Source: Deltaproteobacteria bacterium (GTDB taxonomy: Bacteria > Desulfobacterota > Desulfobacteria > Desulfobacterales > JAFDDL01). From it: a stretch of DNA of 9,646 nucleotides. Shown in pieces: positions 1,552 to 9,646 of the stretch. The stretch's first letter is position 1. Each line of letters opens with the position of its first letter. The stretch lies in the NCBI GenBank assembly GCA_019310865.1, contig JAFDDL010000101.1, positions 1 through 9,646 on the forward strand. The letters are read 5' to 3'. The notes beneath the pieces are model-generated. The model did not search any database. It was not told the DNA's origin and saw nothing but the letters and a program-made list of their open reading frames with translations. Position numbers and translations under genes: made by a program.

Positions 1552-3699
1552 ATGCTTCCAATCAGCGACATAATCAAACGGCTTGCCGATACCCACGGGC
1601 AGGCGGACCTGGATCTGGTCCAACGGGCTTATGACTTTTCCGTGTCGGTTCACAAGGGGCAAAAACACCCAACGGGGGAGTCGTTTCTTTCACACCTGAC
1701 AGCAGTTGCCGATATCCTGGTCACCATGAATCTGGAGCCTGTCAGCGTGGCGGCCGGGCTGCTGCATGACGCCTTGGAAGACGGCCGCACCACGGGGGAT
1801 AAGGTCCGATCGCAGTTTGGTTCATCGGTATACCGGATTGTGTCGGGTGTCACGCGAATCAGCACCCTTCCCCTGCACAGCTCTCACCAGGCCAGCCAGG
1901 CTGAAAACATTCGAAAAATGATACTGGCCATGGCCGATGATATTCGGGTCATCCTCATCAAGCTGGCCGACCGGCTGGACAATATGCGCACAATCGAACA
2001 TCTCGCACCGGAAACCCGGCTGGCCATGAGCCAGGAAACCCTTGACATATATTCGCCTATTGCCGCGCGTTTGGGTATCTATTGGATCAAAAACGAGCTG
2101 GATATCATTGCGTTTCAACATGTTCACCCGAATGTCTATCAGGGCATTGCCAACCGGGTAAAAAAGGATCGTGTCCAACGGGATCGGTATGTTGTAACGG
2201 TTAAAGAATTGATCCTAAAGACCTTGTCGGAAAACAACATCCCATGCGAGGTGATGGGGCGATATAAAAATTTTTACAGCATTTACACCAAGATGATCAG
2301 CCAGGATCTGCCCTTTGAAGAGATCTACGACATTATTGCGTTTCGAGTTATTGTTGATACCATCCCGCAATGTTATGAAGTCCTTGGGCACCTGCATGCC
2401 ATGTGGAAACCGATTGCGAAAAAATTTAAGGATTACATCGGGTTCCCGAAATCGAATATGTACCAATCGCTGCATACCACCGTTATCGGTCCCAATGGTG
2501 AACGGGTCGAAATTCAGATTCGCACCTGGGAAATGGATGAGATCGCCAAATCTGGTATTGCCGCCCATTGGAGTTACAAGGAAGGAAACTCGGCTGACCA
2601 GCAGATAACCCGTCAGTTTGGCTGGATTCAAAATCTGGTTGAAAACCAGGACAGTGTTCAGGAGCCCGGCGAATTTCTTGAAAACGTTCGAATCGATCTA
2701 TTTCCCGACGAAGTTTATGTGTTCACACCCAATGGCGAAATCAAGACTTTACCCAAAGGGGCGACACCGGTCGATTTCGCTTATACGATTCATTCCGAAG
2801 TCGGGCATCAGTGTACAGGCGCCAAAGTCAACGGGCGTATGGTGCCGCTGCAACACAAACTGGCAACCGGCGACATTCTTGAAATCATTACCACAAAGGG
2901 CCACGAACCGAGCAAAGACTGGCTCAATTATGTCAAGACGGTCAAGGCAAGGTCACGGATTCGCCAGTGGATCAAGATACAGGATCGGGAGCGGAGTTTG
3001 TCTCTGGGGCGGGAAATGTGTGAAAAATTATTCCGCAAGCATCGACTTAACTTCAATGTGCTGGTCAAATCAAAACGAATTGAAGAAGTTTCCGCCATAT
3101 TCGGGTTCAAAGATGTTAAAGAACTGATTGCCTCAGTGGGTTACGGAAAAATAACCCCACTGCAGATCATTCGAAAGCTTGAAGTCAAGGAGGAACCCGA
3201 AGAGCGCTCCGATGCGGTCCTGGAGAAATTTATCGAGCGGGCCCAAAAGAAAAAAGAGAAATCCGGTGTGTTGGTAAGAGGCCTCGGCGATATTCTGATT
3301 CGGTTTGGTCAATGTTGCCGGCCTGTTCCCGGAGATCCCATCACCGGATACATCACCCAAGGCCACGGCGTGACAATCCATCGGACAACCTGTGTGAACG
3401 CGCTGAAAATGAATCCGGAAAGGCGGGTTGATGTTTCCTGGAACACAGGCGAGGCGGATACCTATCCGGTAAAGATCAATGTCCAGGCTGAAGATCGTGT
3501 GGGATTGTTGGCCGATATTGCTTCCACCATCAGCAAGCAGGGCGCCAATATACTCAGTGCCGACTCTGAGGTGCATGAGAGCAAGAGTGTTTACCAATCA
3601 TTCACCATTACGGTGAAAGATACCGCCCAGTTAAAAACCGTAATGGCGGCGATTCGGCGTGTTAAGCCGGTTCGTTCAGTCCGGCGGGTAAAAACATAA
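1552..3699 (+). CDS. rsh: Bifunctional (p)ppGpp synthetase/hydrolase (RelA/SpoT family, Rsh)
   Basis: This is a long RSH enzyme that makes and degrades the stringent-response alarmone (p)ppGpp. The 715-residue length fits the family. In order: an N-terminal HD hydrolase domain with HDALED at 72-77 and the KLADRLDNMRT block at about 138-148, both intact and so predicted active; a synthetase domain with GRYKNFYSIY (about 236), YDIIAFRV, KDYIGFPK and YQSLHTTV, then EIQIRTWEMDEIA; a TGS domain (about 386-447, beginning VYVFTPNGEI); a Cys-Cys motif (C588-C589, FGQCCRPVPGD); and a C-terminal ACT domain (about 640-713). The regulatory stretch before KDYIG reads KFKD (291-294), close to the RxKD signature of bifunctional enzymes and unlike the ExDD of RelA. 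The ATG at 1552 has AAGGA six bases upstream. It follows ispG after 20 bp. Confidence 0.96.
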   Translation: MLPISDIIKRLADTHGQADLDLVQRAYDFSVSVHKGQKHPTGESFLSHLTAVADILVTMNLEPVSVAAGLLHDALEDGRTTGDKVRSQFGSSVYRIVSGVTRISTLPLHSSHQASQAENIRKMILAMADDIRVILIKLADRLDNMRTIEHLAPETRLAMSQETLDIYSPIAARLGIYWIKNELDIIAFQHVHPNVYQGIANRVKKDRVQRDRYVVTVKELILKTLSENNIPCEVMGRYKNFYSIYTKMISQDLPFEEIYDIIAFRVIVDTIPQCYEVLGHLHAMWKPIAKKFKDYIGFPKSNMYQSLHTTVIGPNGERVEIQIRTWEMDEIAKSGIAAHWSYKEGNSADQQITRQFGWIQNLVENQDSVQEPGEFLENVRIDLFPDEVYVFTPNGEIKTLPKGATPVDFAYTIHSEVGHQCTGAKVNGRMVPLQHKLATGDILEIITTKGHEPSKDWLNYVKTVKARSRIRQWIKIQDRERSLSLGREMCEKLFRKHRLNFNVLVKSKRIEEVSAIFGFKDVKELIASVGYGKITPLQIIRKLEVKEEPEERSDAVLEKFIERAQKKKEKSGVLVRGLGDILIRFGQCCRPVPGDPITGYITQGHGVTIHRTTCVNALKMNPERRVDVSWNTGEADTYPVKINVQAEDRVGLLADIASTISKQGANILSADSEVHESKSVYQSFTITVKDTAQLKTVMAAIRRVKPVRSVRRVKT

Positions 3700-3724: not shown

Positions 3725-3916
3725 CTATGGCGCTTTGATAACCTTGCCCGATTTGATGCAGTTGGTGCACACCATAATTTTTTTCACGTTGCCGCTCCGG
3801 ACGGCACGGACCCGTTGGAGAATCGGGTTGAATCGACGTTTTGTCACATTATGGGCATGGCTGACATTGTTGCCGACCATTGGTTTTTTCCCGCATATTT
3901 CACATGCTTTTGACAT
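3725..3916 (-). CDS. rpmB: 50S ribosomal protein L28
   Basis: L28 is a structural protein of the large ribosomal subunit. The 63-residue product begins [12 protein letters not shown] and has two CxxC pairs (C5/C8 and C50/C53), the zinc-ribbon form of L28; [12 protein letters not shown] and the basic middle are also typical. The frame is open well upstream, to 4075, but the ATG at 3916 is preceded by AAGGAG at good spacing and gives the family's normal N-terminus, so the shorter start was chosen. It is convergent with the rsh gene, with 25 bp between stop codons, and stands alone as it often does. Its promoter must lie in 3917-4137; a TTTACA -35-like hexamer (minus strand, 4043-4038) is followed 17 bases later only by a weak TAAGAG. 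Confidence 0.95.
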
Positions 3917-4137
3917 CTTTGCTTTCTCCTTTTCGGCGTTGGATTGCCCCGATCTGAGTTGATTCACATTCGAGGCCATAAGGGTTCGCCGACGATCATC
4001 AGTCGAATCAGGAACTCTTACACCATAATTGACGCTGTGTAAAGACTTTTTCGTTTCAGTCCAGGGGAACCGCATTTGGAAATCAGCCAGCTAATACTTT
4101 CAGCAAATAATCGTTATCCCATCCGGCCCTGAGCCGT
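3917..4137. promoter_or_regulatory. rpmB upstream region, promoter not firmly located
   Basis: This stretch lies between the rpmB start (minus strand) and the winged-helix fragment (plus strand). On the minus strand TTTACA at 4043-4038 could be a -35 box, but the hexamer 17 bases on, TAAGAG at 4020-4015, matches the -10 consensus in only three positions. On the plus strand a TAA at 4108-4110 closes the frame of the downstream fragment, and no ribosome-binding site precedes it. The segment may contain the decayed front of that fragment's parent gene, but no protein similarity was recognised in it. Confidence 0.25.
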
Positions 4138-4395
4138 TTGGATTTGCAGAAGGATAGATTAAGTCAAGCGATAGAACGCGAAAAGCTGTTTTCAAAGCTC
4201 TCGGTGCTTTCCAATCGAATTTTACAGATCGTTAAATCCCATGGCCAGGCGTCAATATCCGATCTCGAATCAATCACCAACGCCAACAGGAATACTATCA
4301 AAGTCAAACTGCGGGAACTTGTGGCAGGCGGGTATCTGGTAAAACAAGGTAAGGGTAAAGGAACTTGGTATACGCTTGGTGCGCGTTCGTTGTGA
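4138..4395 (+). CDS. Isolated winged-helix domain, probable C-terminal remnant of a Fic-family protein
   Basis: The 85-residue frame holds a single winged helix-turn-helix: LSNRILQIVKSHG, then ISDLESITNANRNTIKVKLREL as helix-turn-helix, then GYLVKQGKGKGTWYTL as the wing. The NANRNTIK...L..LV..G.L...G.G.GTWY pattern is, from family memory, the C-terminal domain of many Fic (AMP-transferase) proteins, where it follows a short Lys/Glu-rich helix like the EREKLFSKL seen here. No Fic core motif (HPFxxGNGR) occurs upstream. The only start is TTG at 4138 without a ribosome-binding site, and an in-frame TAA lies at 4108. It is therefore most likely the tail of a truncated gene; a small free-standing DNA-binding protein is the alternative. 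It is convergent with the deacetylase gene. Confidence 0.6.
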   Translation: MDLQKDRLSQAIEREKLFSKLSVLSNRILQIVKSHGQASISDLESITNANRNTIKVKLRELVAGGYLVKQGKGKGTWYTLGARSL

Positions 4396-4452: not shown

Positions 4453-5289
4453 CTATTCAGAAAAAATGGAGCCGGCAAGCCCACGAAGGAAAGCCCGGAC
4501 ATTTTGACCGAGCTCAGCATGATTATACCCGCCTTCTAAAATACCGAAACATCCACCCTGATTTCGTTTAGCCGCGGTTCGCACGATTTGTCCCATCTCA
4601 TAATAATTTGTTGTGGAAAGCAAACCACCCCAATCAGCTTTATGGCTATCAAACCCGGCGGACACACCGATGATATCAACCGGTGTGTTTTCCAAGGCAT
4701 TTTGAACCCCTACCACATAAGATACCCTGTCTCCGGCGCCCGGATTCAATATCGTGACACCTCTCCGGTTTCCAAGGATGTTCACATTACCGTCACCATA
4801 GTGAAGGTCAAAGTCAAGTATGAAAGCGGTGCTGATTTTTCCCTGATGCATGAGATTTTCAATGGCCACAGCCATATTGTTAAAGAAGTAAAATCCCCGG
4901 CAACTGTCAGATGAGGCATGATGTTCCGGTGGACGAATGAGGCCAAAACTCGGGTCCCGCAAACCCGTTTCTACAGCGGCGATTGCCCCGCCTGCTGCCA
5001 AGGCGGCTATTTCATATAGGCCTTCGCTTCGAATCTGGTCGATGTGAAACTGACTGTGAACGAGGCCAATGACAGATTCATCAGCAGCGGTTGGCTCAAG
5101 GAAGGTTACATCATTTTCTATGGCGGTTACAATCGCTTCCATTCGACCACCCGCAGCTGCGGGATCGGACGTATACACCTCATATTTATCTTTGAATTCG
5201 GTAAGGACCCCACGACGATGTCCCCGAGCCGAGCCGGCCGGTTCACCGTTATGACGAATCGGTCGTTTTCGGAAAGTGAGTAGGCACAA
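4453..5289 (-). CDS. Histone-deacetylase/AcuC-like metal-dependent deacetylase, start codon uncertain
   Basis: The product belongs to the arginase/deacetylase fold of bacterial histone-deacetylase-like amidohydrolases; its substrate is unknown. Numbered from the TTG at 5289, it shows the His pair H123-H124 (RPPEHHASSDSC), the metal-ligand motif LDFDLHYGDG with D161 and H163, the third ligand D214 (SAGFDSHKAD), and the active-site tyrosine Y255 (LEGGYN). All catalytic positions are present. Family similarity begins near residue 28-36 (KYEVYTSDPAAAGGRMEAI). The first 27 residues look unrelated, and no ATG, GTG or TTG sits where the family normally starts. The only upstream option is this TTG without a clear ribosome-binding site; the first ATG inside is at residue 50. 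The usual Gly before the His pair is Glu here. The core is read with confidence, but the gene may have lost its natural 5' end. Confidence 0.8.
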   Translation of the reverse strand: MCLLTFRKRPIRHNGEPAGSARGHRRGVLTEFKDKYEVYTSDPAAAGGRMEAIVTAIENDVTFLEPTAADESVIGLVHSQFHIDQIRSEGLYEIAALAAGGAIAAVETGLRDPSFGLIRPPEHHASSDSCRGFYFFNNMAVAIENLMHQGKISTAFILDFDLHYGDGNVNILGNRRGVTILNPGAGDRVSYVVGVQNALENTPVDIIGVSAGFDSHKADWGGLLSTTNYYEMGQIVRTAAKRNQGGCFGILEGGYNHAELGQNVRAFLRGLAGSIFSE

Positions 5290-5396
5290 TCGCTGTAAGC
5301 ATTGGCTTCACATCCGACGTGTTCCGCCACCGTCTCCCGGCGGGTACGTTGCAGGGATTCGGGCTGCGCAGTTAGGATTAAAGGTTTGCATCATTT

Positions 5397-5429
5397 AAAA
5401 AGGCCAAACGGGGTATATCCCGGTTGGCC
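5397..5429 (-). terminator. Rho-independent terminator-like hairpin, minus strand
   Basis: Arms 5402-5412 and 5419-5429 pair in 10 of 11 positions around a six-base loop. Read on the minus strand, the hairpin is followed directly by five T (complement of 5401-5397). There is no T-run on the plus side, so it would stop leftward transcription, either from a lost minus-strand gene to its right or coming from the cas side. It lies upstream of the deacetylase start. Confidence 0.55.
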
Positions 5430-5534
5430 GATCCCATGCCCCCTATGTTCACTCTTATCGACGGCATCTATACCAAGGAATGCGGTCCCAATATCGACGG
5501 TGCCGCTCGCAGAAGCGATGTGCTCGTGGCATCA
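5424..5534 (+). pseudogene. Fragment resembling a DUF362-family protein
   Basis: One frame reads MFTLIDGIYTKECGPNIDG followed by RRSDVLVAS. From memory this resembles the conserved core of DUF362 proteins, which carry similar T-x-x-DGI...GP..G......L-x-AS segments. Only about 30 residues are recognisable. The frame starts inside a terminator hairpin, has no ribosome-binding site, and turns into unlike sequence after about 5534. The identification is tentative. It is probably a leftover of a plus-strand gene whose front has been deleted. Confidence 0.35.
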
Positions 5535-5668
5535 TCCGCGCCTTTCACGATGCGGGGGTCAACATCGACCCGGCCAAGCTATAGGACCCCCAACAATGGG
5601 CGCCGTCCTTTATGCGCAGGTATCAGAACCGCACGGAGTTTGATCGATCGCATTTTGAAATTGCCTAA
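5525..5668 (+). pseudogene. Unidentified C-terminal gene fragment interrupted by an in-frame TAG
   Basis: In a frame shifted relative to the preceding fragment, 5525-5581 reads GIIRAFHDAGVNIDPAKL, then TAG at 5582-5584, then DPQQWAPSFMRRYQNRTEF and a short tail ending at TAA 5666-5668. Both sides of the TAG look like natural protein sequence, so the TAG is best explained as a CAG-to-TAG change in a dead gene. The two sides may belong to the same parent as the DUF362-like fragment after a frameshift or deletion, or to another gene. I do not recognise the family. A plus-strand terminator follows 43 bases after the final stop, as expected for the end of a former gene. Confidence 0.4.
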
Positions 5669-5710
5669 ATTGAAAAATTCTAACCACCCGTCGGTATCGA
5701 CGATCAGTCG

Positions 5711-5742
5711 AAGGGGTAGTTCGTCTACCCCCTTTGCTTTTT
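5711..5742 (+). terminator. Rho-independent terminator, plus strand
   Basis: GGGGTAG (5713-5719) and CTACCCC (5725-5731) form a perfect seven-base stem with loop TTCGT. They are followed by CTTTGCTTTTT, giving a T-rich tail at 5733-5742. Placement just after the stop at 5668 suggests it once ended the decayed plus-strand gene. It now also separates the cas operon from read-through from the left. Confidence 0.7.
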
Positions 5743-5850
5743 CAGTAGAAAAAGAGTAAAGGAAAAACATGGCATCGAAAATTCATAAGGCGATTATGTA
5801 ATGCCTTCCTGTTTCCGAACGGCCAGGGCAATGATTCCGCGGAGGGTTGT

Positions 5851-8481
5851 ATGCAAAAAGAGTTTGTTGCTCATTACCGTAGTTGTGATGATGAAATTCA
5901 AACGGTGTGTGAACACTTAAAGGGTGTGGCCAAAATCAGCAAGTCATTTGCTGCAAAAATTGGACTTTCTGATGCCGGAGCGCTTCATGGTCTGCTCCAT
6001 GATCTTGGAAAGTACAGCGAATCGTTTCAAACCTATATTAAGTCAGGATCCGGGCTGTTAAACCCTGATATCGACGATGCACCTGTGGATGTAAAGGCAT
6101 TCAAAGGCAAAATCGACCATTCAACAGCAGGCGCCCAGTGGGTGTGGCAACGGTTTTGTAAATACGGCTTGCATGGGAAATTGGCCGGACAGATCCTGGC
6201 GGTCTGCCTGGCCTCCCACCACGGCGGATTGATCGATTGCCTCCAGGTGGAGGGTACAAATGGTTTTTTAAAACGAATTGGCAAAAGCCATGACACCACG
6301 CATTTCAAGGAATGCCTTGAAACAGGGGATGCCAAGTTCATTGATTCTTTGGAAAGAATCGCGACAGAATATTTTTTAAAAAAAATCTTAAAAAAAGTTG
6401 CCGCCGTTGTTTCCCCCGAAAAACAGGAACATGATCGCCTGAAACATTTCAGACTTGGATTTTTTACCCGGTTTTTGTTCAGTTGCCTGATTGACGCGGA
6501 TCGAATTGATAGTGCTGATTTTGAAACGCCTGGAAATGTTCAATTGAGATGGAAAAAGCCTGTTGACTGGCAGATTGCCATAGACCGGTTGGAGGAAAAG
6601 CTTGCCGGGTTCGAAGCGCGAAACCGTGTGAATGAGCTTCGCAACGAAATTTCTCAACAGTGTCTGAAGAGAGCTTGTGATCCACAGGGAATATATACTT
6701 TGACTGTCCCCACAGGGGGAGGAAAAACATTTACTTCCATGCGTTATGCCCTGTATCACGCACAAAAGCATAAACTGGACCATATCATTTATATTATTCC
6801 CTATACTTCGATCATTGACCAAAATGCCAGAGAGATTCGAAAAGTTATAGAACAAGATGGAGATGAATACCCCTGGGTGCTGGAGCATCACTCCAACCTG
6901 GAGCCGGAACAGCAAACCTGGTATGCCAAACTCTCCTCGGAGAACTGGGATGCCCCTGTTGTTTTTACAACCATGGTTCAGTTCCTTGAGGTCCTTTTTG
7001 GTGGAGGAACCCGGGGCGCAAGGCGGATGCACAACCTGGCAAAATCCATCATCATATTTAATGAAGTTCAGAATCTGCCGGTCAATTGCGTCCATCTGTT
7101 CTGTAATGGATTGCAGTTTTTGGTGGATCATACCCATACCACAGCCATCCTTTGTACTGCCACCCAACCCTTACTGGATGGAGTGAATCCGGATTACGGT
7201 GTGCTTACAATTTCTCGAGAAAATGAACTTTCTGGTGACACAACCGCTCTTTTTAAGGAATTGAAACGAGTGGAGATTAAGGATTTGACTCGTAACGAAG
7301 GATGGGCTGAGGAAGACATCGCTGATTTGTCCTTGGAGCAGATGAGGGGAAAAGGCAACTGCCTCGTGATTGTCAATACCAAGGATTGGGCAAAAAAGCT
7401 GTATGAAAGATGTAAATCCCAGGTCGATAAAGAGGGCGTCTATCATTTGAGTACAAACCTTTGTCCCGCACACCGTAAAAAGGTCCTGAAAACAGTTAAG
7501 GAACGCCTTTTGAAAAACCTTCCGGTGCTCTGCATATCAACTCAACTCATCGAGGCCGGGGTGGATGTTGATTTTAATGCGGTGATTCGTTTTCTGGCCG
7601 GTCTTGACGCCATTGCCCAGGCTGCCGGGCGCTGCAACCGAAACGGAAACCTGAAAACAGCACAGGTATATGTCGTCAATCCGAGTGAGGAGGCCGTTGA
7701 TTTACTTGAAGACATTAAAATAGGCCGGGACAAGGCAAAAAGGGTTCTTGGTGAGGGAGGACATGAGAGCTTTTTGAGCCCTTCAGCCATGGAGCGGTAC
7801 TTTTCCTATTATTTTTATGAACGAGCCAGAGACATGAAATTCACACTTACTGCGAAACAGGCTGGGAGGAAAGACTCCCTCTTAAACCTGCTCAGTGACA
7901 ACCCGCTCAACGTGGGCAGAGGGAAAGACCCCCAGAAGGTCAAATTCAGTTTGCAGCAATCGTTTAAGGCGGCAGGCAATGCTTTCAGGGCCATTGACGC
8001 ACCAACCCAGGCCGTTATTGTCCAATATAATGAAGGTAAGGACATTGTGGCCGGACTCTGCGCCACCCCTGAGCCTTCCAGGGCATACGGATTGCTGAAA
8101 AAAGCCCAGCAATATTCGGTCAACCTTTTTCCCAATGTGTGGAAAAAATTAGATACGGCGGATGCAGTGCATCCGGTGCAGGATGGTGAAGAAATATTCT
8201 ATCTGGACGAGCGCTATTACAGCCCGGAATTAAAGAAAGACCAGATTGACGGCAAACATTTCAACATTGCCAGACGAATGCTTGAAGGAGGGGGGCGGCA
8301 GGATATTTTCCTGGGAGCCAGGGACTGCCAGGGCTATGTGGAGCCCTGTCGCTTCGGTGATGGGAAGGGCTTTTATGATGACATTGACGAGTTGAGTTTC
8401 GGTCTCATGTTCCATAGCTTTGACTACCCGGATGAACAGGAAAAAATGAACTTGCCAGCCGGTTCTGGCAGGCTGTCATGA
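5851..8481 (+). CDS. cas3: Cas3 helicase-nuclease (type I-C), fused in frame to a partial Cas5c
   Basis: Cas3 is recruited by Cascade to unwind and cut target DNA. Residues 1-~200 form the HD nuclease with H22, H50-D51 (LLHDLGK), H90 and H123-H124. The helicase has Walker A PTGGGKT (287-293, K292), motif II written NEVQ (404-407, where DEVQ/DEAQ is usual), CTATQPLL, STQLIEAGVDVDF and QAAGRCNRNG. The Cas3 C-terminal domain runs to about 791-794 (YLDERYYSPEL). From about 795 the sequence becomes Cas5c: GKHFNIARRMLEGGGR (801 on), IFLGARDCQGYVEPC, FGDGKGFYDD and FGLMFHSFDYPDE. The frame is then lost, and ten unrelated residues precede the TGA at 8479. The 876-residue length exceeds normal I-C Cas3 because of this extension. 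GGAGG sits five bases before the ATG. The residual Cas5c frame and cas8c follow by ATGA-type overlaps. Confidence 0.93.
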   Translation: MQKEFVAHYRSCDDEIQTVCEHLKGVAKISKSFAAKIGLSDAGALHGLLHDLGKYSESFQTYIKSGSGLLNPDIDDAPVDVKAFKGKIDHSTAGAQWVWQRFCKYGLHGKLAGQILAVCLASHHGGLIDCLQVEGTNGFLKRIGKSHDTTHFKECLETGDAKFIDSLERIATEYFLKKILKKVAAVVSPEKQEHDRLKHFRLGFFTRFLFSCLIDADRIDSADFETPGNVQLRWKKPVDWQIAIDRLEEKLAGFEARNRVNELRNEISQQCLKRACDPQGIYTLTVPTGGGKTFTSMRYALYHAQKHKLDHIIYIIPYTSIIDQNAREIRKVIEQDGDEYPWVLEHHSNLEPEQQTWYAKLSSENWDAPVVFTTMVQFLEVLFGGGTRGARRMHNLAKSIIIFNEVQNLPVNCVHLFCNGLQFLVDHTHTTAILCTATQPLLDGVNPDYGVLTISRENELSGDTTALFKELKRVEIKDLTRNEGWAEEDIADLSLEQMRGKGNCLVIVNTKDWAKKLYERCKSQVDKEGVYHLSTNLCPAHRKKVLKTVKERLLKNLPVLCISTQLIEAGVDVDFNAVIRFLAGLDAIAQAAGRCNRNGNLKTAQVYVVNPSEEAVDLLEDIKIGRDKAKRVLGEGGHESFLSPSAMERYFSYYFYERARDMKFTLTAKQAGRKDSLLNLLSDNPLNVGRGKDPQKVKFSLQQSFKAAGNAFRAIDAPTQAVIVQYNEGKDIVAGLCATPEPSRAYGLLKKAQQYSVNLFPNVWKKLDTADAVHPVQDGEEIFYLDERYYSPELKKDQIDGKHFNIARRMLEGGGRQDIFLGARDCQGYVEPCRFGDGKGFYDDIDELSFGLMFHSFDYPDEQEKMNLPAGSGRLS

Positions 8482-8612
8482 AAAAGGGCTTTCTTTATTT
8501 CCCCCGACCAGATGCCTGTGATAAACGGCGGCTTATCAGAAAAATGACGCCCAAACCATTCGGCCTGGAAAAAAATGTTCGGCCTGTGGAGAAAGAGGAG
8601 GCCCTGTTATGA
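8224..8612 (+). pseudogene. cas5c: cas5c remnant: C-terminal half only, split by a frameshift
   Basis: Cas5c (Cas5d) is the crRNA-processing Cascade subunit of type I-C. Only its C-terminal half survives here. 8224-~8440 is in frame with cas3 (DGKHFN, IFLGARDCQGYVEPC, FHSFDYPDE). From the A6 run at 8441-8446 the match continues in the -1 frame: ELASRFWQAVMKKGFLYFP, then RPDACDKRRLIRKMTPKPF, ending at TGA 8610-8612. By memory comparison with Bacillus halodurans Cas5c, which has the same FLGARECQGYVAPC, FPRPEDC and MEPKIF landmarks, the remnant starts near that protein's residue 105. It keeps the Lys-His pair (K802-H803 here, K116-H117 there) but lacks the N-terminal half with the catalytic Tyr46. 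One extra A in the run would restore a single 920-residue Cas3-Cas5c frame. An ATG at 8478, overlapping the cas3 stop, could restart translation of a 44-residue peptide. Confidence 0.85.
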
Positions 8613-9646
8613 GTTGGATGGCAAAGCTATACGAGACGTATGATAATATTGAGAGGATGGAAAATTATTACGATCAAAACCAATTGTGGCCGGTATCTCA
8701 TTTTGTAAAAAATGCTCATATAGAGGTTGCTATATATAGCGATGGTAATTTCCTGAAAGGCAGAACAAAAATATTGCATGGTGAAGAGAGTCCGACGTTA
8801 ATACCAGCCACGGAGTCATCAGCAGGTAGATCAGGGAAAAAAATAGCTCCCCATCCATTATGTGAAGAAGTCGGTTACTGTGCAATTGATCGTCCCAAAG
8901 CAGATCAAAATAAAGTGTTGGCCTATATGGAACAATTGAAGGAGTGGGCAACATCTAATTGGTCTCATCCCAAAGTGACGGCAATGTTGAACTATCTTGA
9001 TAAGGAAACCTTTTGGAGAGACCTGAGCAATGAAATTGAATTTCCGATTATAGTAAAAAAGCTGAATGGAGAAAAAAAAAAAAAATCTGCGGAAAAGGCT
9101 TTTATCCGATGGCGAATAGAAAAACCTGGGTTAGTGGATAGCACCACATGGGAAGATGAGGATCTAATTCACTGTTGGATTGGATTTGACCAAGAAAAAA
9201 ATAGTAAATATGGATTTTGCTATATCCAAGGAGAGAAAATCAGGCGGGCATCAAATCACCCTCGTTTTTTGAGATGGCCAGGTGATGGGGCCAAACTTGT
9301 TTCTTCAAATGACCACAGCGGATTTACATTCAGAGGCCGCTTTACCGATTCAAAGTCAACGATAGATAAAAGCGGCGTTCAAGCTGTAAATGTTAGTTTT
9401 GATGTTACTCAAAAAGCGCATAATGCACTCCGATGGCTTTTAAACGGGGAAAGATGTTTTCGCAATGGGGAGCAGGTTTATGTGGCCTGGGCAATATCAG
9501 GAAAAGAAATCCCGAAACCTCTAGAGAGCACCTGGGGACTTTTCAATGCAGATCTCACCATACAGGAAGAAGTAGAGCCGGAGGCTGAACAATCTTTGGA
9601 CCATTCAATTGATTTGGGGGGCTATTTTGCCACGCAGTTAAAAAGA
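8609..9646 (+). CDS. cas8c: Cas8c (Csd1) Cascade large subunit, 3' end outside the window
   Basis: Cas8c is the large subunit of the type I-C effector and recognises the PAM. The visible 346 residues start MSWMAKLYETYD and are open to the window edge; full-length proteins are usually near 570-600 residues. Family landmarks are the N-terminal PVSHFVKNAHIEVAI, APHPLCEEVGY, the FLRWPGDGAKLVSSND block and NALRWLLNGERCFRNGEQVYVAW (272-294). The ATG at 8609 overlaps the cas5c-remnant stop (ATGA) and has GAGGAG at 8595-8600. The sequence is visibly more A-rich than cas3 and carries 14 A in a row encoding poly-lysine. In I-C operons cas7, cas4, cas1 and cas2 normally follow. Confidence 0.9.
   Translation, partial: MSWMAKLYETYDNIERMENYYDQNQLWPVSHFVKNAHIEVAIYSDGNFLKGRTKILHGEESPTLIPATESSAGRSGKKIAPHPLCEEVGYCAIDRPKADQNKVLAYMEQLKEWATSNWSHPKVTAMLNYLDKETFWRDLSNEIEFPIIVKKLNGEKKKKSAEKAFIRWRIEKPGLVDSTTWEDEDLIHCWIGFDQEKNSKYGFCYIQGEKIRRASNHPRFLRWPGDGAKLVSSNDHSGFTFRGRFTDSKSTIDKSGVQAVNVSFDVTQKAHNALRWLLNGERCFRNGEQVYVAWAISGKEIPKPLESTWGLFNADLTIQEEVEPEAEQSLDHSIDLGGYFATQLKR
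9072..9085 (+). repeat. A14 homopolymer tract inside cas8c
   Basis: Fourteen consecutive A follow the G at 9071 and encode the end of a Glu codon plus four Lys codons (residues 156-159). The reading frame is intact at this length: coding resumes as SAEKAFIRWRIEK. Loss or gain of one A would shift the frame, and with one A fewer a TAG follows within about 12 codons. Runs of this length are known sites of replication and transcriptional slippage. Confidence 0.75.

What the first reader, a model, noticed from the sequence alone, without database searches (positions are those of the whole stretch)
8200..8612. cas3 fused in frame to the back half of cas5c
Between cas3 and cas8c a type I-C locus should hold a complete cas5c of about 220-240 codons. 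Here the cas3 frame passes without a stop from its own C-terminus (YYSPEL, about 789-794) into Cas5c sequence starting near GKHFN (801). A deletion of roughly 350-400 bp, removing the last few Cas3 codons and the first ~105 Cas5c codons, explains this. The S/R-P-E/D-L context is similar in both parents and may have been the joining point. The result is a chimeric nuclease-helicase with half a crRNA-processing subunit, and apparently no working Cas5c. It is either a dead or disarmed CRISPR system or an uncommon Cas3-Cas5 architecture.
Basis: partly seen in the sequence, partly recalled or inferred. Interest (0 to 1): 0.85.

Follow-up and report, generated by a model that had tools for sequence, protein, structure and literature searches.

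The report
Broken CRISPR locus with fused cas3-cas5c
A deletion in a bacterial type I-C CRISPR locus has welded the DNA-shredding gene cas3 to a piece of cas5c, the gene that makes the guide RNAs, and further damage nearby suggests the immune system is decaying rather than gaining a new protein.

Summary
ORF 5851-8481 (876 aa) is a nearly complete type I-C Cas3 (to about residue 790) running in frame into Cas5c from its middle onward. Ten intact loci hold 383-391 bp more at this point, and the closest Cas3 found (91% identical) has a normal end. The breakpoint lies at 8221-8233, where the end of cas3 and the middle of cas5c look alike. About 15 Cas3 codons and 104-107 Cas5c codons are gone. 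The Cas5c remnant also changes frame near 8434-8437, so the fusion holds only about 72 of 234 Cas5c residues. Cas3 carries Asp404Asn in helicase motif II; the 120 listed homologues (of 7,998 scored) all have Asp. No other Cas3-Cas5c fusion turned up: 93 of 93 Cas5c places in 395 phylum genomes lie in open frames of 109-323 aa. Best reading: recent decay of an ordinary I-C locus, with no crRNA-processing subunit, probably a motor-less Cas3, and Cas8c still open as far as the window goes. A working fusion is unlikely. Reads could not be mapped nor the rest of the genome searched, so an assembly error or rescue by another Cas5/Cas6 remain open. Ordinary decay, not a new system.

The parts
5851..8220 (+). 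cas3 (type I-C) part of the fused ORF, residues 1-790; HD nuclease and SF2 helicase motifs present except motif II
   Evidence: PADLOC Cas3c E 2.6e-213; TIGR01596 and TIGR01587; 91% identical to P0001; motif columns
7060..7062 (+). Asn404 codon in Cas3 motif II (Walker B); Asp in the relatives compared
   Evidence: D in 120 of the 120 listed homologues, out of 7,998 scored, and in 21 of 21 locus relatives
8221..8233 (+). deletion breakpoint and fusion point (S791-P792-E793-L794), in a stretch similar in the cas3 end and mid cas5c; 383-391 bp missing
   Evidence: codon-level comparison with 10 loci; 60 nt upstream match cas3 42-47/60, 60 nt downstream match cas5c 41-48/60 in 3 loci
8221..8436 (+). 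in-frame remnant of cas5c (about residues 105-176 of the 234-residue L001 Cas5c), keeps the K116/H117 equivalents as K802/H803
8434..8437 (+). one-base frame change inside the cas5c remnant; the fused frame then reads 14 unrelated residues to the stop at 8479-8481
   Evidence: DNA alignment with L001 and L002; three-frame translation
8437..8612 (+). cas5c 3' end in the other frame; from an ATG at 8478 that overlaps the fusion stop (ATGA) it could be read as a 44-residue ORF ending on the cas8c start (ATG 8609, stop 8610-8612)
   Evidence: (E 0.0013)
8609..9646 (+). cas8c, first 346 codons, open, runs off the window
   Evidence: PF09709 E 2.8e-49; 260 of 345 residues (75%) identical to L001 Cas8c without gaps

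Best explanation
An ordinary type I-C cas3-cas5c-cas8c operon, of the kind found in Desulfobacterales, has begun to decay. A deletion of roughly 385 bp between two short similar stretches (end of cas3, middle of cas5c) removed the last about 15 Cas3 codons and the first 104-107 Cas5c codons and left the two frames joined, presumably by chance. A one-base frame change broke the cas5c remnant again, and a motif II Asp-to-Asn change probably stopped the Cas3 motor. Shown: the deletion relative to relatives, the fusion, the frame change, the substitution. Inferred: no Cas5c means no crRNA processing and no 5'-handle clamp, so no Cascade and no interference; Cas3-N404 would at most nick. The order of events is unknown.
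For: Intact separate cas3 and cas5c in relatives, with 383-391 bp more in 10 of 10 compared. The closest Cas3 (P0001, 91%) has the normal C-terminus and motif II DEIQ, so fusion and D404N are derived. D404 in 120 of 120 listed homologues and 21 of 21 locus relatives. Frame change against L001 and L002. Of 87 Cas5c positions invariant in 17 relatives, 46 (with Y46) lie in the deleted part, 29 (with K116 and H117) remain in the fused frame and 12 lie past the frame change. In the AlphaFold2 model of L001 Cas5c, 5 of 15 strands and helices (E4-16, H35-45, E51-62, E65-72, E83-101) lie in the deleted part (mean pLDDT 75, other four models under 40). In I-C, Cas5c replaces Cas6 (PMC5965380 passages) and with Cas7.7 clamps the crRNA 5' handle (PMC7684278 passages). 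No fusion elsewhere in the searches made.
Against: Apart from D404N, Cas3 looks well kept: 4 of 166 sites invariant in 21 relatives changed, within the 0-7 of the other sequences. The excess over P0001 at conserved sites (window v P0001: 2 v 0, 3 v 0, 5 v 2, 8 v 3, 13 v 5 at falling thresholds) is never significant, p 0.10 at best. Cas8c is open to the window end. The stop/start overlaps may keep translation coupled to cas8c. A type I-G Cas3 with the Walker B Asp changed still gave immunity when well expressed (PMC10482374 passages), so D404N alone need not kill. The rest of the genome and the CRISPR array could not be examined.
Confidence: 0.85

Rival explanations
1. Assembly artefact: reads were joined wrongly across the similar stretch, and the real genome has an intact cas5c.
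For: Reads could not be mapped; no own genome is held. The similar stretch at the breakpoint is where a wrong join could happen. A one-base frame change is also a common sequencing error. L007, from a MAG, has a split cas5c too.
Against: The switch is confined to about a dozen bases (8221-8233), short for an assembly overlap (recalled). The frame change is not in a long homopolymer, while a run of 14 A in cas8c is in frame. D404N is a third, independent departure, at a site conserved in 120 of 120 listed homologues.
Confidence: 0.1
2. A working fused Cas3-Cas5c protein, with the remnant tethering Cas3 to Cascade or the crRNA.
For: The join is in frame, and the invariant Lys-His pair (K802/H803) is kept. 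Cas fusions do exist, e.g. Cas2-Cas3 in I-F and HNH-Cas5 in I-E2 (PMC5965380 and PMC12669027 passages).
Against: The fusion holds only about 72 of 234 Cas5c residues. No second example among 93 Cas5c places in 395 genomes, 25 loci with a cas5c frame, or the protein collection at that search's sensitivity. Motif II is changed.
Confidence: 0.03
3. The locus lacks cas5c but is rescued in trans by another Cas5c or a Cas6 in the same genome, so interference continues.
For: Cas8c open as far as seen and most of Cas3 well conserved. Some genomes of the order hold two Cas3-like matches on different contigs, e.g. G263 and G391.
Against: Nothing in the window supports it; D404N would still be expected to impair the Cas3 motor.
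Confidence: 0.07

Closest known systems
Type I-C CRISPR-Cas (cas3-cas5c-cas8c-cas7c-...)
   Same: Gene order as far as seen; Cas3c, Cas5c and Cas8c families
   Different: cas5c is reduced to an in-frame middle piece plus a frame-shifted tail; Cas3 has Asn in motif II; cas7, adaptation genes and the array lie, if present, beyond the window and were not seen
Damaged I-C loci in related genomes (L018 cas3 broken near residue 238; L007 cas5c split over two frames)
   Same: A lesion in an otherwise conserved I-C operon
   Different: Here the lesion joins two genes in one frame and there are three departures; L007 and L018 may themselves be sequence errors
Cas2-Cas3 fusion of type I-F
   Same: A Cas3 joined to another Cas protein (PMC5965380 passages)
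   Different: There a Cas2-like domain is fused at the N-terminus as a standing feature of the subtype; here a piece of Cas5c at the C-terminus, seen once

Membership tests
Type I-C CRISPR-Cas locus | Cas3 of subtype I-C | tested here: met
   PADLOC Cas3c best, E 2.6e-213
Type I-C CRISPR-Cas locus | Cas8c/Csd1 | tested here: met
   TIGR01863 E 1.3e-33 (116 bits, cut-off 219, gene cut by the window end) and PF09709 E 2.8e-49 over its cut-off
Type I-C CRISPR-Cas locus | complete Cas5c as crRNA-processing subunit | tested here: not met
   only profile positions 99-179 of 203 in the fused frame, 73 bits under the cut-off of 85; the N-terminal part is missing between cas3 and the remnant
Type I-C CRISPR-Cas locus | Cas7c, adaptation genes and a CRISPR array | not testable with these tools
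   window ends inside cas8c; no whole genome held; no CRISPR-like repeat array in 5200-9646
Functional Cas3 helicase-nuclease | HD nuclease residues | tested here: met
   H50, D51, H123, H124, D217 as in the listed homologues; assignment of roles recalled
Functional Cas3 helicase-nuclease | motif II (DExx) Asp | tested here: not met
   Asn404; Asp in 120 of 120 listed homologues
Cas3-Cas5c fusion as a conserved architecture | found in more than one lineage | tested here: not met
   0 of 93 Cas5c places in 395 phylum genomes; 0 of 25 loci with a cas5c frame; protein search 12 candidates, none at E 0.001

The most novel reading that the evidence does not exclude
The chimera is made and used: a Cas3 whose motor is switched off and which carries a crRNA-gripping Cas5c stub nicks DNA without translocating, in a locus shifting from shredding to local nicking or silencing.
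Probability: 0.02. Interest if true: 0.75.

Novelty: new member of a known kind. Interest (0 to 1): 0.2.

Why it matters
It shows one way a type I-C locus can fail: crRNA processing and probably the Cas3 motor are hit while the large subunit is still open as far as seen. It is also a warning that an automatic annotation could list a 'Cas3-Cas5c fusion' that is best read as a deletion scar. If the fusion were functional it would be a Cas architecture not met in the searches made here.

Tried and rejected
Normal Cas3 C-terminal extension: rejected; profile and solved-structure sequence matches are to Cas5c, and the closest Cas3 ends 15 residues after the junction.

Slippage at the A6 run (8441-8446) as a programmed frameshift completing Cas5c: rejected as the origin; the alignment puts the frame change just upstream, at about 8434-8437, and the N-terminal part would be missing anyway.

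Relaxed selection as support: not significant.

Search of viral contigs: 12 stretches matched a pattern, none encodes a relative. Search for the host by IspG: best listed match 77% identity; 361 of 389 genomes of the order matched, so no close genome was found there. Alignment A4 put the Cas5c fragments in the wrong place and was not used. No fold search was run.

Literature: search listings; passages only of PMC5965380, PMC10482374, PMC8001533, PMC6546361, PMC10333696, PMC7684278, PMC12669027 and PMC7074321; no paper was read whole. One search (five phrases) gave 4 papers, all through 'fused cas3'; none of the four Cas3-Cas5 phrases occurred. Two Cas5d papers (Nam 2012, Punetha 2014) are not held, so the roles of Y46/K116/H117 are recalled.

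Full report
What was checked. The window holds ispG (443-1531), a relA/spoT gene (1552-3699), rpmB on the minus strand (within ORF 3725-4075), a histone-deacetylase-family ORF on the minus strand (4453-5289), then from 5851 a CRISPR-cas operon. The fused ORF 5851-8481 is 876 codons without a stop. Residues 20-222 match Cas3 HD, 284-615 the Cas3 helicase, and 791-869 the Cas5c profile TIGR01876 at positions 99-179 of 203. PADLOC files residues 3-793 under Cas3c. Against solved Cas5c chains the tail begins at chain residue 114 (9w6c) and 108 (4f3m).

The intact state. One scan of genome contigs gave 7 relatives. In 5 of the 7 (L001, L002, L003, L006, L007) both Cas3 and Cas5c matches lie on one contig, with a gap between them (371 bp in L001, 376 bp in L002), and in separate ORFs; L007's cas5c is itself split over two frames. 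L004 and L005 end before the Cas5c part. Codon-level comparison in 10 loci, from 10 genomes, gives 383-391 bp missing in the window. L001 Cas3 runs 15 residues past the junction, and its 234-residue Cas5c meets the junction at about residue 105. The closest Cas3 found, P0001 from a JGI metagenome, is 91% identical over 794 residues and ends YYSPEF plus 15 residues, as the other Cas3 proteins do. So the separate state is ancestral and the fusion derived.

The breakpoint. In three loci compared base by base (L001, L009, L002), the 60 nt before the junction match cas3 at 42-47 positions (cas5c 25-27), and the 60 nt after it match cas5c at 41-48 (cas3 16-18). The switch falls in 8221-8233, where the end of cas3 (SPE/K-F) and the middle of cas5c (RPEL) are similar. 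This suggests a deletion between short similar stretches; the ancestral letters are not known, so the length of identity cannot be measured.

Second lesion. Aligned with L001 and L002, the cas5c remnant changes frame by one base at about 8434-8437. The fused frame then reads 14 unrelated residues and stops at 8479-8481; the Cas5c C-terminus continues in the other frame to 8612. The fusion therefore holds only about residues 105-176 of Cas5c. The stop overlaps an ATG (8478), and the other frame's stop overlaps the cas8c ATG (8609), so ribosomes might still be handed on to cas8c (inference).

Third departure. Cas3 motif II reads FNEVQ where the relatives read FDEIQ or FDEVQ. Asp is present in 21 of 21 locus relatives and in the 120 proteins listed, of 7,998 scored. 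The other HD and helicase motifs checked (I, III, V, VI) are kept. The Asp is recalled to serve ATP hydrolysis in SF2 helicases; its loss should stop translocation. But in a type I-G system Cas3 with the Walker B Asp changed to Ala still protected cells when well expressed (PMC10482374, passages only), so this change alone need not disable immunity. Otherwise Cas3 is not visibly decayed: 4 of 166 invariant sites changed, against 0-7 in the other 21 sequences. Changes at conserved sites exceed those of P0001 at each of five thresholds (2 v 0, 3 v 0, 5 v 2, 8 v 3, 13 v 5) but not significantly (p 0.10 to 0.5). The damage therefore looks recent (inference).

What is lost from Cas5c. In 17 relatives 87 Cas5c positions are invariant: 46 lie before residue 105 and are deleted, 29 lie in 105-176 and remain in the fused frame, 12 lie after the frame change. 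Y46 is among the deleted ones; K116 and H117 remain as K802 and H803. That these three form the ribonuclease site of Bacillus halodurans Cas5d is recalled; the papers are not held. In the AlphaFold2 model of L001 Cas5c (mean pLDDT 75, the other four models under 40, 17 sequences) 5 of 15 strands and helices lie before residue 105. Cas5c is the pre-crRNA nuclease of I-C (PMC5965380, passages) and holds the crRNA 5' handle in the complex (PMC7684278, passages). Without it neither guide maturation nor Cascade assembly is expected.

Is the fusion found elsewhere? Not in the searches made. Searching about 5.8 billion proteins with residues 785-876 under the length limits of the whole protein gave 12 candidates, none at E 0.001; that search needs shared 5-residue words and did not list the window's own protein either. 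Of the 37 loci fetched (two genomes twice or more), 25 have a cas5c frame over 60 bits and none of them shares an ORF with cas3. In 395 genomes of the phylum, 89 have a Cas5c match at E 1e-8; all 93 places lie in open frames of 109-323 aa.

Limits. No genome is held for the window, so I could not look for a second cas5 or cas6, the array or the rest of the operon, and no reads could be mapped. An assembly error is less likely because three departures are independent, the frame change is not in a long homopolymer, and a run of 14 A in cas8c is in frame.

Verdict. A real but ordinary event: a type I-C locus decaying by deletion, frame change and a catalytic-site substitution. The fusion is best read as a scar.

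Noticed in passing
7060-7062: Cas3 motif II Asp replaced by Asn; Asp in all 120 listed homologues.
   Followed up: yes
8478-8481 and 8609-8612: Two stop/start overlaps (ATGA, TTATGAG) could pass ribosomes from the fusion through a 44-residue Cas5c tail ORF to cas8c.
   Followed up: partly
9072-9085: Run of 14 A inside cas8c, in frame and within a gap-free protein alignment to L001; a likely site for slippage.
   Followed up: no
L018 (oriented), cas3 near residue 238: A close relative (G363, contig over 3 Mb) has cas3 split into two frames while its cas5c is whole: another decaying I-C locus or an error.
   Followed up: partly
L007, about 4070-4300: cas5c split over two frames in a MAG.
   Followed up: partly
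5290-5850: Stretch between the deacetylase ORF and cas3 with no Pfam match in the three ORFs tried that reach into it and one terminator-like hairpin at 5713-5731 (0.7 expected by chance).
   Followed up: partly
PADLOC model PDLC01766: A Cas3c model of 1009 positions matches only from position 324, so some Cas3c proteins may bear an N-terminal extension of about 320 residues.
   Followed up: no
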